A DNA stretch of 57,258 nucleotides from Spirochaetaceae bacterium (GTDB lineage Bacteria > Spirochaetota > Spirochaetia > Treponematales > Breznakiellaceae). Positions 41,328-48,751 of the stretch are shown here, piece by piece; the first letter of the stretch is position 1, and the number at the start of each line of letters is the position of its first letter. A program made the position numbers and the translations under genes. Below the pieces are notes generated by a model. That model did no database searches and had not been told where the DNA came from. It saw only the letters and a program-made list of their open reading frames with translations. The stretch covers positions 1-57,258 of the forward strand of contig JAITHJ010000002.1 of NCBI GenBank assembly GCA_031280035.1. Reading direction: 5' to 3'.

Positions 41328-43271
41328 ATGCAAAGCGGCAAACAAAATGAATCCCGCAGGTATGTAAACTTTCCGATACGGATTAAACTCATTTTAGTCA
41401 TTACTATACTCCTGTTTATTTCCTTAGGACTTATAACTATGCTTGTTGAATTTTTTATGAGCCGCAATCTGGAAGATACCGCATGGGAAAACAACATCAA
41501 CATAAATGAAATGTCTTCTACTACTACGGAAATAGAAATTAACAGTGTAATTTCCAGAACATCTGTGTTTATGAATGATGTTTTAATGCTGAACGAAAAA
41601 GGCAATCAGAAATTTACCGGTTTCTTTTTTCGAGAAAACGAAGATATAATAGCAATTGTTACCCGAACGCCGTTTAACGACGGCGATCTTCATGGTTTAT
41701 CATTATGCAGCGAACGTTTTTTTCAGCAAAACGATATAAATCCAGAGATGATAAACGCTTTCATTGCCGTCAATCAGCGTTATTTCACGCATGTGGAAAC
41801 AAACGGAACGTTAATTTTGAACGCTACGCCAGTCTTAAACGGACTTCCGGTTATTGTCATTTTTTACAAACTACAGGAGAACGATAATTCCACGGTTGCC
41901 GCGGTCTTTTTTTCAGCTGAGTCTATAACAACCTCGTTCGGTACCGGAACAAACAATACAATGCTGATAAACAACTTTGGCGATGTGCTGATTGCCACCG
42001 ATCAAGAGCTATTAGTAAACGGCGGCAACCTTGCTGAAACGCCGTTTATTAAGGATGTGCTGGACAGCAATACGGTAAATTTACAGAAAAAATTTAAAGA
42101 CAAAGAAGGCAGGGAATTTCTTGCCGTATCAAAACGCCTTAAAACAGGAAATACTATAACAATAACAACAATACCTTCTGACGTGGTATTTGAAGGCATT
42201 ATAACTGCAACAAGACGCAATATTCTGCTGTCTTTAGCAATTTGGTTTCTTTCGATGCTCTTTGTATGGTTTTTCTCAAAGAGTATTTCACTGCCCCTGC
42301 GTAAGCTGGAAAAAGCCGTGCATAACATAGAGAACGGCATGTATCATCTTGAAATAAATAATAAAAAGAACAATGATGAAACCGGCATTCTTACGCGCAG
42401 TGTTTCTTCAATGAGTCATGTTCTGGAAAACTTTGAAAGCTTTACAAACAAGGAAATTGCGCGGCTTGCGCGCGATGGCAGCCTTAATACAGCCGGAATT
42501 GTGAAACACATAACGATATTCTTTTCAGACATTCGTTCCTTTACGGCTATTTCAGAAAAGTTTACGCCAAATGAAGTCATAGAATTCTTAAACGAATATA
42601 TGGAGCGTATGGTTGACTGCGTTCTTGTTACGAATGGAGCTATAGATAAATTTATAGGCGATGCGATAATGGCTTATTGGGGCGCGATAACTTCCGCAGG
42701 AAGCGCTGAACAAGATGCATTCAACGGCGTAAAATCGGCCTTAATGATGCGGGCGCTGCTGAAGTGTTTTAATAAAGGACGAGGCGGCGATAAAAAGCCA
42801 ATTATCAAAATTGGCTGCGGCCTTAACAGTGGAAAGGCTGTTATTGGACAAATCGGCTCAGAAGAACGTACTGTTTTTACTGTTATTGGAGAGATGGTTA
42901 CCCTTGCTGACCGTACCGAGACATTTAACAAACCGTTTGGATCTGAAATTCTTATCACCGAACACACGTATAGCCTTGTTAAAGATTATTTCATAACGGA
43001 AAAGATGGGGGAAATTAAAGAGAACGGCAAACAGCTTGGAATTTATGCGGTAATCAATATGTGTGAAGGAGAAAGATTAAATGAAACGCTGGCGCAGCTT
43101 GAGAAGCTTTCTCATACCGATAGGGAAATCGTCCTCGCATGTATAGGCCCGTCAGGCCCGCAGACCATAGAAGAGCTGCGCGCTCTGCTTGATATTCCCA
43201 AGCCTGATCTTACAAACATCAATTTGGAAGAAGAAGAGAAAAAATACAGCGTTACAACCAACAATGGCTAA
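41328..43271 (+). CDS. Membrane class III adenylate/guanylate cyclase
   Basis: 647 residues: first helix about 18-40, extracytoplasmic sensor domain to about 300, second helix (ILLSLAIWFLSMLFVWFF), HAMP linker, then a class III catalytic domain. Metal Asp lies in FFSDIRSF (Asp401) and KFIGDAIMAYWG; the specificity Lys is 441. The transition-state motif reads GEMVTLADRTE (from about 521): the Asn usual in VNLA is Thr, while the following Arg is kept. The C-terminal 60 residues are a tail. The membrane sensor is unidentified. Confidence 0.9.
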   Translation: MQSGKQNESRRYVNFPIRIKLILVITILLFISLGLITMLVEFFMSRNLEDTAWENNININEMSSTTTEIEINSVISRTSVFMNDVLMLNEKGNQKFTGFFFRENEDIIAIVTRTPFNDGDLHGLSLCSERFFQQNDINPEMINAFIAVNQRYFTHVETNGTLILNATPVLNGLPVIVIFYKLQENDNSTVAAVFFSAESITTSFGTGTNNTMLINNFGDVLIATDQELLVNGGNLAETPFIKDVLDSNTVNLQKKFKDKEGREFLAVSKRLKTGNTITITTIPSDVVFEGIITATRRNILLSLAIWFLSMLFVWFFSKSISLPLRKLEKAVHNIENGMYHLEINNKKNNDETGILTRSVSSMSHVLENFESFTNKEIARLARDGSLNTAGIVKHITIFFSDIRSFTAISEKFTPNEVIEFLNEYMERMVDCVLVTNGAIDKFIGDAIMAYWGAITSAGSAEQDAFNGVKSALMMRALLKCFNKGRGGDKKPIIKIGCGLNSGKAVIGQIGSEERTVFTVIGEMVTLADRTETFNKPFGSEILITEHTYSLVKDYFITEKMGEIKENGKQLGIYAVINMCEGERLNETLAQLEKLSHTDREIVLACIGPSGPQTIEELRALLDIPKPDLTNINLEEEEKKYSVTTNNG

Positions 43272-43878
43272 TTACAAAACGCCGGACTTCTGGACGCTGA
43301 AAGCGCAGCGGGAAAATTATCCGGCGCGGTCTGTCTTTAAGCTAAAGGAGATTGACGAGAAATTCGGCCTGCTTCCCAGAAACAAAACAAAACATCCATT
43401 CAAGGTTCTTGATCTTGGTGCGGCGCCCGGAAGCTGGAGCATGTATGTACTGCGGCGAATGAAGGATTCCGTCTTTCTTGTAAGCTGCGATCTTACCGGT
43501 ATGCGGTTCGAAAGTACCGGTAATCTGCGCGTCTTAAAAGGCGATTTTACGCAGCCTGATGTACGCGCCATGATAGCCGGAAGCGGGCCGTACAATCTTA
43601 TACTCTCGGACGCGGCGCCGGCGACATCAGGCAGCCGTGTTCTTGACACAGACCGCTCGCTGGTTTTGGCCGAAGCGGCGATGCAGTATGCGGATACGTT
43701 GCTTTTTACAGGCGGGCATTGCGCCGTAAAGCTGTTTCAGGGAGGCGAAACAGCGGAGTTCTTAAAACGGGTACGGCCTGCATTTGACAAAGTAAAAGTA
43801 TTCAAACCGGCGGCCTGCCGCTCGTCTTCGTTTGAAACGTATCTTGTCGCTTTGGGAAAGAAGCAGTGCCGGGGATGA
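43264..43878 (+). CDS. rlmE: 23S rRNA (uridine-2'-O) methyltransferase RlmE/FtsJ
   Basis: Start ATG 43264, overlapping the cyclase stop by eight bases. Family motifs are present: RSVFKLKEIDEKFG with the catalytic Lys, SAM-binding LDLGAAPGSWSMYV, LSDAAPATSG with catalytic Asp, and CAVKLFQGGE with the second Lys. It methylates the ribose of U2552 in the A-loop of 23S rRNA. The last four codons overlap the tRNA-Leu 3' end on the other strand. Confidence 0.93.
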   Translation: MANYKTPDFWTLKAQRENYPARSVFKLKEIDEKFGLLPRNKTKHPFKVLDLGAAPGSWSMYVLRRMKDSVFLVSCDLTGMRFESTGNLRVLKGDFTQPDVRAMIAGSGPYNLILSDAAPATSGSRVLDTDRSLVLAEAAMQYADTLLFTGGHCAVKLFQGGETAEFLKRVRPAFDKVKVFKPAACRSSSFETYLVALGKKQCRG

Positions 43879-44102: not shown

Positions 44103-45392
44103 ATGAACTACAAACTAACGGCGGTGCTTCTTGCCGCGCTGACGCTGGCCGCCGGCTGCCGCGCCGCTTCACAGGTGAAAGGCAACGGACTTGCTGCCAT
44201 CAAACAGGATAGAAACGGCAACGTCATTGAAAACATCGTGTATATTGAAGTGAACAACGATGATCCGAGGGTTGCGCTCGGCTATGCGTTTGAAAACACC
44301 GGCATTCAATTCTTTGATTACGTGGTACTCTTTGCGGCTAACCTGCGAAACCGCGACTGCAAGGCGGAGCTTGAAGCCGGCGAAACCGGCCATGACTGCA
44401 CCAAACGCGGCGTTCATCTTCATTACAACGGCAACCTCTCTCATATCCTTGAGAACCGCGACAAATACATCAAACCCTTGCAGGACAGCGGTATAAAGGT
44501 ACTGTTAGGGCTGCTTGGCGACTGGGGCGGCGTCGGCTTTGGCAGCTTCGGCAGCTGGCCTATGGAGGACGTCTATCCGTGGACGACCGCCGGCAACCCT
44601 GCGAACCCGCAGGGCGGCGCGTATCCTTATACGGTAGAGGCGCGCCGCGCGTTCATCGAGGAGGCCGCGGCGGAGGTGAAGCGGCTCGGTCTTGACGGCA
44701 TCGATATAGATGACGAGTGGGGCAGCGGCGGGGACTGGCCTGCGAATCAGAAAGGGCTGTGTATCTACCCCGATCAGGCGGGGTACTACGACGACCGCAC
44801 GGCTGAAGATGCGGCGTGGGCGCGCTGCGGCGTGAACCTTGCAAACTTCCTTGTGAACGCCCGCGATGCGCTCGGGCCGGATGCGATTATCAACGTTTAT
44901 GAATATAACAGCGCGCGGTATATGAACATTCCGGCCAATACCCGCATCATGCTGGAAAACGGGCGGTTTCTGACAACGATCAACGGGTATTACGATTATA
45001 GTGTGGAAGCGGTCTACGGCGCATGGAGTACCGACGGATACAACGGCCACCCGCACATGCGCTACGCGCCGGTGGGCATCGATATTGCAGGCGAAGATAA
45101 CCCCTCATCGCCGCGCCCGCCTATCCGCGGCGCGCCCCTTACCATTGCCGAGTGCGCCAGAATGGAGCTTGCCGTAAAGCGTCCCTACGGCGTGAATATG
45201 TTCTACGGCCTGCGCTCGCATGAAGCGGCGGCGCGTCCCTACGGCAAGGAGGCTCATCCTAAGTTATGGGACGCCGAAGAGAAGCGGCTCTTAACTCAAA
45301 CCGAATACCTTTCACTGTTTTCGGAAGTTTTGTATGGAAGAAAGATCGTCTACTACGGCAAAGACTTCCCGCAAGACTGGACGCGCCGGTAA
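44103..45392 (+). CDS. EndoH-like GH18 endo-beta-N-acetylglucosaminidase, lipoprotein
   Basis: A lipoprotein signal ends LAAGC (Cys19). The body follows EndoH: FDYVVLFAANLRNRDC, HLHYNGNL, PLQDSGIKVLLGLLGDWGG, and the complete catalytic strand LDGIDIDDEWG near residue 196 (DGxDxDxE intact). 429 residues. EndoH-type enzymes release high-mannose N-glycans by cutting the chitobiose core. Lipid anchoring places it on the cell surface. It is a paralogue of the gene at 21109. Confidence 0.88.
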   Translation: MNYKLTAVLLAALTLAAGCRAASQVKGNGLAAIKQDRNGNVIENIVYIEVNNDDPRVALGYAFENTGIQFFDYVVLFAANLRNRDCKAELEAGETGHDCTKRGVHLHYNGNLSHILENRDKYIKPLQDSGIKVLLGLLGDWGGVGFGSFGSWPMEDVYPWTTAGNPANPQGGAYPYTVEARRAFIEEAAAEVKRLGLDGIDIDDEWGSGGDWPANQKGLCIYPDQAGYYDDRTAEDAAWARCGVNLANFLVNARDALGPDAIINVYEYNSARYMNIPANTRIMLENGRFLTTINGYYDYSVEAVYGAWSTDGYNGHPHMRYAPVGIDIAGEDNPSSPRPPIRGAPLTIAECARMELAVKRPYGVNMFYGLRSHEAAARPYGKEAHPKLWDAEEKRLLTQTEYLSLFSEVLYGRKIVYYGKDFPQDWTRR

Positions 45393-45656: not shown

Positions 45657-46385
45657 TTATTTGACCGTAATCTTTTGGTCGTAGGTGATGATTCGCGGTT
45701 CTTTGATGATTACCTTACCCATGCTGAACCGCGTTTTAATGACCAGCGTATACGTTCCCGCCGTCAGGGCAGGAACGCGGATAATCAGTTTCTTGGGGCT
45801 GTTCTGGACAAGCCGGTGAGACACAGGCGTTTCCCCGCCTGAAGAGGAGACGAAGAACGCCCCTAAGCCGGCCTCGTCTTCGGGAGCTATCTTAATCCGC
45901 TCGCCCTCGATAATAAGGTCTTCATTCGGGGTAACCGTTCCATCGGTCTTGCCCGTAGCCGCATCGGTAACAAGCCCGATGAACGCAACGTTCTCTTTGA
46001 CGCCCAGCACCTCAACGCCGACCTCAGTAAGAGCCGTTCTCAGTTCCGCGCTGGGAGTCATATCACAGGATGTTTTATGCTGCGTCTCGTCAAACTTCGC
46101 GCTGCTTCCTATCCAGTTTCCCAAGATACGCGGCGCAATATGGCACACGCCGGTCTGCACACTGCAACCTTCCTGAATCTTCTGCCTTCGCAGCGCATCG
46201 GCGCGGTTCAGAATATCAAGAAGCGTCTCTTCGTGCAGTTCCGAACCGCCCTCTTTAATCGCCTGAGCAATGTCCTCATTGCGCAGCGTCCTGCCGATAG
46301 TCGAAACCTCCGCCAAATAGTCGTTCTCCACGTCCTTTGTCAAAGGATTCGATCTCAGCCATACCTTCCAAAAAAACCGTTTCAT
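45657..46385 (-). CDS. HU-like DNA-binding/DUF4469 protein
   Basis: AAGGAG precedes ATG 46385. Residues about 15-125 resemble the HU-type DNA-binding domain seen in Bacteroides-type proteins (PLTKDVENDYLAEVSTIG; IGRTLRNEDIAQAIKE; IAPRILGNWIG). Residues about 145-242 look like DUF4469, an Ig-like beta domain (LIIEGERIKIAPEDEAGLG; VPALTAGTYTLVIKTRFS). DNA binding is an inference. It is the third gene of the operon with the DUF1538 and PII-like genes (24-base gap). Confidence 0.72.
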   Translation of the reverse strand: MKRFFWKVWLRSNPLTKDVENDYLAEVSTIGRTLRNEDIAQAIKEGGSELHEETLLDILNRADALRRQKIQEGCSVQTGVCHIAPRILGNWIGSSAKFDETQHKTSCDMTPSAELRTALTEVGVEVLGVKENVAFIGLVTDAATGKTDGTVTPNEDLIIEGERIKIAPEDEAGLGAFFVSSSGGETPVSHRLVQNSPKKLIIRVPALTAGTYTLVIKTRFSMGKVIIKEPRIITYDQKITVK

Positions 46386-46409: not shown

Positions 46410-47153
46410 TTAGTGTAAATTGATGCCTATAATATTCTCCGCAGGCATTGAGAAAATAATCCCTTCAGCCTTTGACGCTATGCCAAAGGCTTTGCTTACC
46501 GCTTCCATTATGGGCCCCATCTTCTCCCTTGTGGAAAGAATGATAATGATTTCTTTCTCATCCTGAACGGAGATGCCAAAAAACTTGACAGGGCCGTTGT
46601 GCATAAGGCCGCGCCCGTTAATAACCGTGCCGCCTCCCGCCCCCGCTTCACGGGCCACTCCCATGAATTCCTCGCTGTATCCTTGGTTCAAAATCGCCAT
46701 GATTAAATCGCATTTTGAACCGTCCGTCTGTTCGTTTGCCATATTCTCTCCTTTACCGCTCTGATGATTATTCGCGCCCTCCTCACGAGCGCCAATCGCC
46801 GATAGGCTCTTTTCAACGCTTTCCTTAAAGACCTTCAGGATAGGAGCGTTGATGCCGGACAACGGTACGGAAAACCCAATCCCCGTTCCGGGCATATGCA
46901 GGCCGAGCTTCTTCCCGACTTCCTTTAATAATGCAGGGGCCATCACGCTCTGCTCAAGGCAGATGATAACGGCCTTGTCCGACTTGCCTATGCCAAGCAT
47001 ATCAAGCGTTTCCGAATTCGCCGTGCCTTCCCCTTTAACGACAAAATGAAACCGGACGTGCGCCTGATCAAAAATAGAACTTATATTCTTGACCTTGCTC
47101 CAGTCAACTATAAAAAATACGAGTTTTAATACCACGCGCTTCTTATCGTTCAT
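46410..47153 (-). CDS. Tandem PII-like regulatory protein
   Basis: Start ATG 47153 with GGGG upstream (a TTG at 47159 also overlaps the DUF1538 stop). The protein has two PII-like ferredoxin-fold halves: residues about 1-110 and about 138-247, joined by a hydrophilic linker (GANNHQSGKGENMANEQTDG). The second half contains AREAGAGGGTVINGRG, the PII B-loop region. PII proteins sense ATP/ADP, 2-oxoglutarate or other small molecules and bind membrane transporters. Its neighbour is a membrane DUF1538 protein, so it probably gates that transporter. Confidence 0.78.
   Translation of the reverse strand: MNDKKRVVLKLVFFIVDWSKVKNISSIFDQAHVRFHFVVKGEGTANSETLDMLGIGKSDKAVIICLEQSVMAPALLKEVGKKLGLHMPGTGIGFSVPLSGINAPILKVFKESVEKSLSAIGAREEGANNHQSGKGENMANEQTDGSKCDLIMAILNQGYSEEFMGVAREAGAGGGTVINGRGLMHNGPVKFFGISVQDEKEIIIILSTREKMGPIMEAVSKAFGIASKAEGIIFSMPAENIIGINLH
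46740..46752 (-). promoter_or_regulatory. Internal ribosome-binding site within tandem PII gene
   Basis: AAAGGAGAGAAT stands directly before an in-frame ATG (46742-46740). Translation from here gives a 110-residue protein (46410-46742) corresponding to the second PII-like domain alone, the size of an ordinary PII. This suggests a nested gene or a fusion of two formerly separate genes. Confidence 0.6.
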
Positions 47154-47155
47154 AC

Positions 47156-48751
47156 TCAATCCCCATAGATAATAATCTCTCCGGCTTCCTCTACGGTCAT
47201 AACGTATCCCGCCTGCTTCATCTGCGCCGTCTTTACCCGGTAGACAAGCCCCATAATCTGAATGACGATTAACGGAGCCATCGCTGCCATCGCCACCACG
47301 CCGAACGCATCCCGCAGCATATCACCGCCTGATCCCGAACACGCTCCCATAGCAAGCGGCAGCAGGAAGGTGGACGTCATCGGGCCGGAACATACCCCGC
47401 CTGAGTCAAACGCAATGCCGACAAAAATCTTCGGCACAAAAAACGTCAGCGCAATCGCAATAACATATCCGGGTATCAGTATGTACAGAATATCAATCCT
47501 CAATAGTATACGCGCCATCGTAATGCCCAGCGCGCCGGCCATCCCTACGGCAAGCCCCGTCAGCATCGTCTTTTGCGGAATAGCTCCCGATGAAATAACT
47601 TCGACCTGCTTATTAAGAACATGCACCGCAGGCTCCGCGTCCACTATGAAATAACCTACTATCATCCCAAACGGAATCAGTATCCATTTGAACGGCGATG
47701 AGGCAAGCTCGTTCCCCAGATACTGCCCCACAGGAATAAAGCCGACGTTCACGCCCGTTAAAAACACCACAAGCCCTATAAACGTATACGCAAAGCCTAC
47801 GCCAATGCGCCGTACCTGCTTGAGCTTATAACGGCGCGAAACCCACTGAAAAACCGCAAAGAAGACCACGATTGCGATAAGCGCCTGCAAGACCTCCACC
47901 GTATAGAACGGAAACTCATGCGCGAATTCTCCGGCTATCGCCTGAGTCGTCAAAGGAGACGGCGTTATCTCGATGCCGGTCTTAATATCATCCGGCTTAA
48001 AAAGAATCCCCAAAACCATTATCGCAAGTATAGGCCCCACGCTGCACAATGAGACAAGACCAAAGCTGTCATCCTGCGATCCTTTGTCGCTGCGGATAGA
48101 CGCTACGCCGATGCCCATAGCAAGAATAAACGGAACAGTCATCGGCCCGGTGGTAACGCCGCCGGAATCAAACGCCACCGGTATGAAATACTCAGGCGTC
48201 CAGTACAAGACCGCAAACACGATAAGGTAAAAGACTATAAGTAATATTGAAAGCGGTATCTTCAAAATAACGCGCAGCACGGCGACTACAAGAAAGAAAC
48301 CGACGCCGATGCCCACGGTAAGCACCAGCACCATCTTGGATTGCAGCCACGCCGGCAGCCCCGCTATGTTAAGCGGAACCTGCTGGGCAAGCACCTGTAA
48401 ATCAGGCTCCGCAATCGTGATAAAAAGCCCCATTATAAAGGAAATGCCTATAACGGCTGCAAGTGAAAAAACCGCGTTTACGATACGTACTATCCGGCTT
48501 GAACTGGCGGACTTGTTTGCGGAACGCATAAGCTGAATGCCAATGCCTTCGCCTATCGGCATCATCGACATATCAGCGCCCATAGTAAAAAGCCCCATGC
48601 CGATAATCAATAAGGCTGCGCCCGCTATAAACATCAGCATCATTCCGGCGGGTATTGGCGCCAGTACGACGCTTGCAATAAGTACAATGCCGGTAATCGG
48701 CAGCACTGAGGAAAACGCTTCTCTTATCTTTTCATACAATACCTTATTCAT
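47156..48751 (-). CDS. DUF1538 integral membrane protein, internally duplicated
   Basis: 531 residues with about twelve to fourteen hydrophobic segments. The sequence duplicates itself: FDSGGVTTGPMTVPFILAMG near residue 192 and FDSGGVCSGPMTSTFLLPLAMG near residue 445 (quoted to 20 or fewer in the paper form FDSGGV-x2-GPMT). These are DUF1538 signatures. A transporter or channel role is inferred from topology and from the PII-like neighbour; the substrate is unknown. First gene of a three-gene minus-strand operon. Confidence 0.8.
   Translation of the reverse strand: MNKVLYEKIREAFSSVLPITGIVLIASVVLAPIPAGMMLMFIAGAALLIIGMGLFTMGADMSMMPIGEGIGIQLMRSANKSASSSRIVRIVNAVFSLAAVIGISFIMGLFITIAEPDLQVLAQQVPLNIAGLPAWLQSKMVLVLTVGIGVGFFLVVAVLRVILKIPLSILLIVFYLIVFAVLYWTPEYFIPVAFDSGGVTTGPMTVPFILAMGIGVASIRSDKGSQDDSFGLVSLCSVGPILAIMVLGILFKPDDIKTGIEITPSPLTTQAIAGEFAHEFPFYTVEVLQALIAIVVFFAVFQWVSRRYKLKQVRRIGVGFAYTFIGLVVFLTGVNVGFIPVGQYLGNELASSPFKWILIPFGMIVGYFIVDAEPAVHVLNKQVEVISSGAIPQKTMLTGLAVGMAGALGITMARILLRIDILYILIPGYVIAIALTFFVPKIFVGIAFDSGGVCSGPMTSTFLLPLAMGACSGSGGDMLRDAFGVVAMAAMAPLIVIQIMGLVYRVKTAQMKQAGYVMTVEEAGEIIIYGD

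What the first reader, a model, noticed from the sequence alone, without database searches (positions are those of the whole stretch)
46410..48751. DUF1538 membrane protein, tandem PII-like protein and HU-like protein in one operon
Three minus-strand genes lie 2-24 bases apart: an internally duplicated polytopic DUF1538 protein, a protein made of two PII-like domains, and an HU-like/DUF4469 protein. PII proteins commonly gate membrane transporters, so a metabolite-controlled transporter of unknown substrate is suggested. The addition of a predicted DNA-binding/Ig-like protein is unexplained. To my knowledge the DUF1538 function is not established.
Basis: partly seen in the sequence, partly recalled or inferred. 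Interest (0 to 1): 0.7.

Follow-up and report, generated by a model that had tools for sequence, protein, structure and literature searches.

The report
PII-coupled sodium/proton antiporter operon

Summary
In detail: DUF1538x2 (47156-48751), a tandem PII-like protein (46410-47153) and an HU/DUF4469 protein (45657-46385) lie on the minus strand 2 and 24 bases apart. Two genes are a real unit; the third is not. In the sampled loci, 145 of 151 DUF1538 genes (Spirochaetota, Bacillota, Synergistota) are followed at once by the PII-like gene, as in Alphaproteobacteria; only 3 exceptions are genuine. The HU gene is missing from both same-genus relatives and belongs to a dispersed multicopy family. 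DUF1538 function is not wholly unknown: the DUF1538 pair UmpAB is a published Na+(Li+,K+)/H+ antiporter. New here: the two DUF1538 halves look like inverted repeats (charge pattern opposite in 8 of 8 loop pairs); the PII protein has GlnK fold but lacks the ATP-phosphate residues; and its domain number tracks the transporter form in this sample: separate umpA+umpB with one PII, fused protein with two, long fused protein (~660 aa) with three. Best reading: a monovalent cation/proton antiporter gated, probably inhibited, by its own non-canonical PII-like protein. Association is shown; gating and ligand are inferred. I found no paper describing this pairing in the library searched.

The parts
47156..48751 (-). 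Fused UmpAB-type DUF1538x2 membrane protein, 531 aa, about 14 TM helices
   Evidence: Pfam PF07556 2e-132; NCBIfam UmpA 7.8e-47 and UmpB 1.1e-39, below the equivalog cut-offs; AF2 pLDDT 90.7
48002..48697 (-). DUF1538 repeat 1 (aa 19-250)
   Evidence: loop charges opposite to repeat 2 in 8 of 8 loop pairs
47243..47872 (-). DUF1538 repeat 2 (aa 294-503)
48401..48412 (-). AEPD motif of repeat 1 (aa 114-117; E115, P116, D117 invariant in A3)
48158..48169 (-). DSGG motif of repeat 1 (aa 195-198) in a broken helix, candidate ion site
   Evidence: D195 invariant; helix break in the AF2 model
47627..47638 (-). AEPA motif of repeat 2 (aa 372-375)
47396..47407 (-). DSGG motif of repeat 2 (aa 449-452)
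   Evidence: D449 invariant; helix break
46410..47153 (-). Tandem PII-like protein, 247 aa, starts 2 bp after the DUF1538 stop
   Evidence: AF2 model and Foldseek match to GlnK/PII, probability 1.00
46863..47129 (-). PII-like domain N (aa 9-97), with the conserved GxGTAxSExLDxLGL stretch in the T-loop region
46428..46712 (-). PII-like domain C (aa 148-242), the copy closest to the single PII of split umpA/umpB operons
45657..46385 (-). HU-DNA_bdg/DUF4469 protein: a local bystander, not part of the unit

Best explanation
The first two genes encode a PII-regulated monovalent cation/proton antiporter. The DUF1538 protein is a fused UmpA-UmpB: two 7-helix repeats of opposite membrane orientation whose AEP and DSGG motifs sit at helix ends and breaks and probably form the ion path (inferred). 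The downstream gene makes a soluble protein of two PII-like domains that probably docks on the cytosolic face and opens or closes the antiporter according to a bound small molecule, as GlnK does to AmtB or SbtB to SbtA. Because the published UmpAB clone was active although no PII gene was reported on it, the PII-like protein more likely holds the antiporter shut than switches it on. Its ligand is not the usual MgATP/2-oxoglutarate pair in the usual way, since the phosphate-binding residues are gone. The HU/DUF4469 gene is not part of the system. Shown: families, folds, conserved gene pairing, domain-number series. Inferred: substrate in this organism, gating, its sign, and the ligand.
For: Gene pairing: 145 of 151 sampled DUF1538 genes have the PII gene immediately downstream on the same strand; of the 6 others, 2 end at a contig edge (L061, L104), 1 is the first gene of a split pair (L034) and 3 are real (L079, L100, L105); in the L079 genome a tandem PII persists elsewhere (L188). 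Starts mostly overlap or lie within about 15 bp of the DUF1538 stop. Co-occurrence over 99 genomes: Fisher p = 8e-18, uncorrected for kinship, and the 6 DUF1538-only genomes carry the divergent three-domain form next door. Nothing else recurs nearby: the next family is in 20 of 148 loci, in mixed orientation. Alphaproteobacterial plasmids have umpA-umpB-PII. Function: UmpAB antiport measured in membrane vesicles (PMC5484666), with the described 4.2-kb clone holding ORF1 to ORF4 and no PII gene mentioned; DUF1538 is among the top 20 pH-predicting Pfam families (PMC13255231). PII fold. Inverted repeats.
Against: No binding or gating was tested. The window protein is well below the NCBIfam UmpA and UmpB equivalog cut-offs (160 and 136 bits against 490 and 500), so its substrate may differ. 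Antiport rests on one laboratory's E. coli KNabc complementation and vesicle assays; the same kind of screen has assigned antiport to several unrelated membrane families, which calls for caution. Solo PII genes without adjacent DUF1538 exist (L188, L189, L190) and one genome (L186) has the PII gene with no DUF1538 found. Whether the Halomonas umpAB operon itself has a PII gene could not be checked.
Confidence: 0.62

Rival explanations
1. The DUF1538 protein is a PII-gated transporter, but for another solute (an organic anion, bicarbonate, or a nitrogen compound); the UmpAB antiport activity is particular to Halomonas or an artefact of the screen.
For: Score well below the UmpAB equivalog cut-offs; the best-known PII-gated transporters carry ammonium and bicarbonate (general knowledge); the family is common in anaerobic gut Bacillota and spirochaetes, which are not halophiles.
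Against: The only measured DUF1538 proteins are monovalent cation/H+ antiporters; DUF1538 predicts growth pH among cation transporters; the acidic AEP and DSGG residues are kept in all classes.
Confidence: 0.25
2. All three genes form one functional unit, with the HU/DUF4469 protein as a DNA-binding partner.
For: Same strand, 24-bp gap, plausible ribosome-binding site.
Against: Absent from both same-genus genomes, whose operons are 75-77% identical in DUF1538 and have other genes downstream; found near DUF1538 in 2 of 147 loci; dispersed multicopy family, over 10 copies in some genomes.
Confidence: 0.03
3. The PII-like protein is not a transporter gate but a free signalling protein whose targets are elsewhere; co-transcription only matches its level to ion stress.
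For: Solo copies exist without an adjacent DUF1538.
Against: Near-obligate pairing and a domain number that follows the transporter form.
Confidence: 0.1

Closest known systems
UmpAB Na+(Li+,K+)/H+ antiporter of Halomonas zhaodongensis (PMC5484666)
   Same: Same Pfam family, paired DUF1538 units, 7 TM predicted per unit
   Different: Here the two units are one polypeptide, with a PII-like gene directly downstream; identity too low for the NCBIfam equivalog models; a term search of that paper for P-II found nothing
GlnK-AmtB ammonium channel and its PII gate
   Same: PII-fold protein encoded beside a membrane transporter; same fold by Foldseek
   Different: Unrelated transporter; T-loop shorter by several residues; the B-loop Lys90 and the Arg101/Arg103 positions not conserved; two domains per chain
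SbtB-SbtA, PII-like protein and bicarbonate transporter
   Same: PII-like protein with altered ligand site paired with a secondary transporter; SbtB among the Foldseek matches
   Different: Different transporter family; SbtB is a single-domain protein

Membership tests
DUF1538 (PF07556) | Match over the curated cut-off, two copies | tested here: met
   439 bits against 22.6, two stretches
UmpAB antiporter (NF041627, NF041628) | Match over the equivalog cut-off | tested here: not met
   159.6 and 136.4 bits against 490 and 500; not filed as an UmpAB ortholog
UmpAB antiporter (NF041627, NF041628) | Monovalent cation/H+ antiport activity | not testable with these tools
   Needs a vesicle assay
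PII superfamily | PII fold (beta-alpha-beta-beta-alpha-beta) | tested here: met
   AF2 model with two such units; Foldseek probability 1.00 to GlnK/PII, target-normalised TM about 0.5-0.75
Canonical PII (GlnB/GlnK) | B-loop GDGK with Lys90, Arg101/Arg103, long T-loop with Tyr51 | tested here: not met
   Position 90 is I/V/L in most N, C and single domains and Lys is not among the commonest residues; position 101 mostly Gly in the C halves; position 103 variable, Arg in 14 of 64 C halves; T-loop shorter in the alignment. The Tyr51 column itself was not scored
Canonical PII (GlnB/GlnK) | ATP/ADP and 2-oxoglutarate binding | not testable with these tools
   Needs a ligand-binding assay
HU/DUF4469 as part of the operon | Conserved linkage to DUF1538 | tested here: not met
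   2 of 147 loci, one on the other side and strand

The most novel reading that the evidence does not exclude
A widespread, undescribed class of PII-gated monovalent cation/proton antiporters, in which the PII part has grown from one to two to three domains per chain in step with fusion and enlargement of the transporter, and senses a ligand other than ATP/2-oxoglutarate; the three-domain form could be a PII trimer made in one chain.
Probability: 0.5. Interest if true: 0.72.

Novelty: new variant of a known kind. Interest (0 to 1): 0.55.

Why it matters
Monovalent cation/proton antiporters set cytoplasmic pH and sodium. If one class is under direct control of a PII-like sensor, ion homeostasis would be tied to a metabolite signal in gut bacteria and spirochaetes, and the DUF1538 family would gain a regulator. 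The one-, two- and three-domain series is also a natural experiment on how a protein that normally works as a homotrimer can be rebuilt within one chain. The pairing makes the function of DUF1538 and the ligand of this PII group directly testable.

Tried and rejected
Viral contigs: no relative of the DUF1538 protein. A solved structure for DUF1538: none by sequence (best E 0.21, an entry named sc-CC-5-24) or by fold (best E 0.018, TM about 0.1). A third conserved partner: none; the nearby class III cyclase gene (41328-43271) has no recurring counterpart among the families listed in that clustering. HU as partner: rejected. A C-terminal acidic tail with a GEII-like motif on DUF1538 as a PII docking peptide: my pattern matched only 46 of 130 fused proteins and none of the 1- or 3-PII classes, so I do not claim it. 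Papers on the pairing: the term searches I ran returned none whose title or abstract describes it; several were narrow, and the library lacks most subscription papers.

Full report
What is there. Three minus-strand genes: DUF1538x2 (47156-48751, 531 aa), a tandem PII-like protein (46410-47153, 247 aa) and an HU-DNA_bdg/DUF4469 protein (45657-46385, 242 aa), with gaps of 2 and 24 bp. The window is contig C67 of a 1.43-Mb, 74-contig genome estimated 64% complete; its closest named relatives in the contig search are MAGs titled Spirochaetaceae and Treponema.

Two genes are a unit, the third is not. In 67 relatives' loci and 80 named loci, 145 of 151 DUF1538 genes have the PII gene immediately downstream on the same strand. 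Of the six others, two are cut by a contig end, one is the first gene of a split umpA/umpB pair, and three are real; in one of those genomes a tandem PII gene lies elsewhere. The two locus sets overlap in part, judged from shared contig lengths; 141 distinct DUF1538 sequences remain. The 80 named loci were the closest matches, so they are not an even sample of bacteria. Over 99 genomes the two genes co-occur (58 both, 33 neither, 6 DUF1538 only, 2 PII only; Fisher p = 8e-18, not corrected for kinship), and the six DUF1538-only genomes in fact carry a divergent PII gene next door. No other family recurs nearby. The HU gene is near DUF1538 in two of 147 loci; the second is a 28%-identical copy on the other side and strand. 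The two same-genus genomes have the operon at 75-77% DUF1538 identity without it, and the family is dispersed in many copies elsewhere.

The transporter. DUF1538 is not functionally blank. UmpA and UmpB of Halomonas zhaodongensis, both DUF1538, together confer Na+(Li+,K+)/H+ antiport and form a heterodimer (PMC5484666). The window protein looks like the fused pair, but falls well short of the NCBIfam equivalog cut-offs, so I do not file it as an UmpAB ortholog. Comparing equivalent loops of the two halves over 51 sequences, Lys+Arg content is higher in alternate halves in all eight loop pairs, as expected for inverted repeats of seven helices with both termini inside; loop limits were set by me from the AF2 helices, so this is a consistency test rather than a blind one. 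The AF2 model is confident (pLDDT 90.7) and has no solved counterpart. The AEP and DSGG motifs are invariant or nearly so and sit at helix ends and breaks; a role in ion binding is inferred.

The sensor. The two halves of the PII-like protein are homologous to each other (98.4%, E 1e-14) and fold like GlnK. Aligned with canonical PII proteins of related genomes, position 90 (Lys) is I, V or L in most domains, Arg101 is mostly Gly in the C halves and Arg103 is not conserved, while Gly89 is kept in all N halves and most C halves; the T-loop is shorter. The usual ATP-phosphate contacts are therefore missing, which says the usual ligand mode is unlikely, not what the ligand is. The genome has a separate canonical PII gene (L208).

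Domain number. Operons with separate umpA and umpB carry one PII domain (L183, L184, L034), closest to the C half. Fused proteins mostly of about 490-560 aa carry two, in three loci as two separate genes (L148, L156, L163). The long fused form, about 650-700 aa, goes with a PII-like protein of about 377 aa; profile comparison supports three PII-like domains in it (T1 and T2 clearly; T3 against the C half E 1e-6, but not against T1 or T2). In a tree the 12 long forms are one clade (support 1.0) and the 130 two-PII forms another (0.90), with the three one-PII forms at its base. In that tree script the two- and three-PII labels were assigned from DUF1538 length, not from a domain count in each neighbour; the PII genes beside 11 long forms were examined directly.

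Mechanism. Most likely a cation/proton antiporter gated by its own PII-like protein. The described Halomonas clone was active and no PII gene is reported on it, which favours an inhibitory gate. Interaction, sign of control, ligand and substrate are inferred, not shown. DUF1538 being among the top 20 pH-predicting families in an independent study (PMC13255231) fits a role in pH or cation balance.

Novelty. PII-gated transporters and DUF1538 antiporters are each known. Of the five papers that name DUF1538, I opened two: in PMC5484666 a term search for P-II found nothing, and in PMC13255231 I read only the passages around DUF1538 and antiporter; the other three I saw only as search listings. Of the further papers that name UmpAB I opened one, PMC10030654, where a term search for P-II and PII found nothing. 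Other searches on PII-like proteins listed no paper whose title or abstract describes the pairing. The library is partial and several searches were narrow, so 'not described' means not found here. I rate it a new variant of a known kind.

Noticed in passing
G000, G004, G012, G015 and other relatives: The HU/DUF4469 family is dispersed and multicopy in some treponeme-related genomes (16 matches in G012 and in G015) and absent from others; several copies lie near contig ends, as repeats do.
   Followed up: partly
L189, L190, L188, L186: Solo tandem PII genes without an adjacent DUF1538; in L189 and L190 they sit beside a similar divergent gene of about 670 aa.
   Followed up: partly
window 41328-43271: Class III adenylate/guanylate cyclase with a HAMP domain; the TTG start listed for the downstream FtsJ-like ORF (43189-43878) overlaps its end.
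   Followed up: no
window 44103-45392: Possible glycoside hydrolase 18-like protein, match below the Pfam cut-off.
   Followed up: no
L048:1501-2292: An extra PII-like gene directly upstream of DUF1538, besides the usual one downstream.
   Followed up: no
L034 and L072 (same genome, G036): One genome holds both a split umpA/umpB with a single PII and a fused DUF1538 with a tandem PII.
   Followed up: partly
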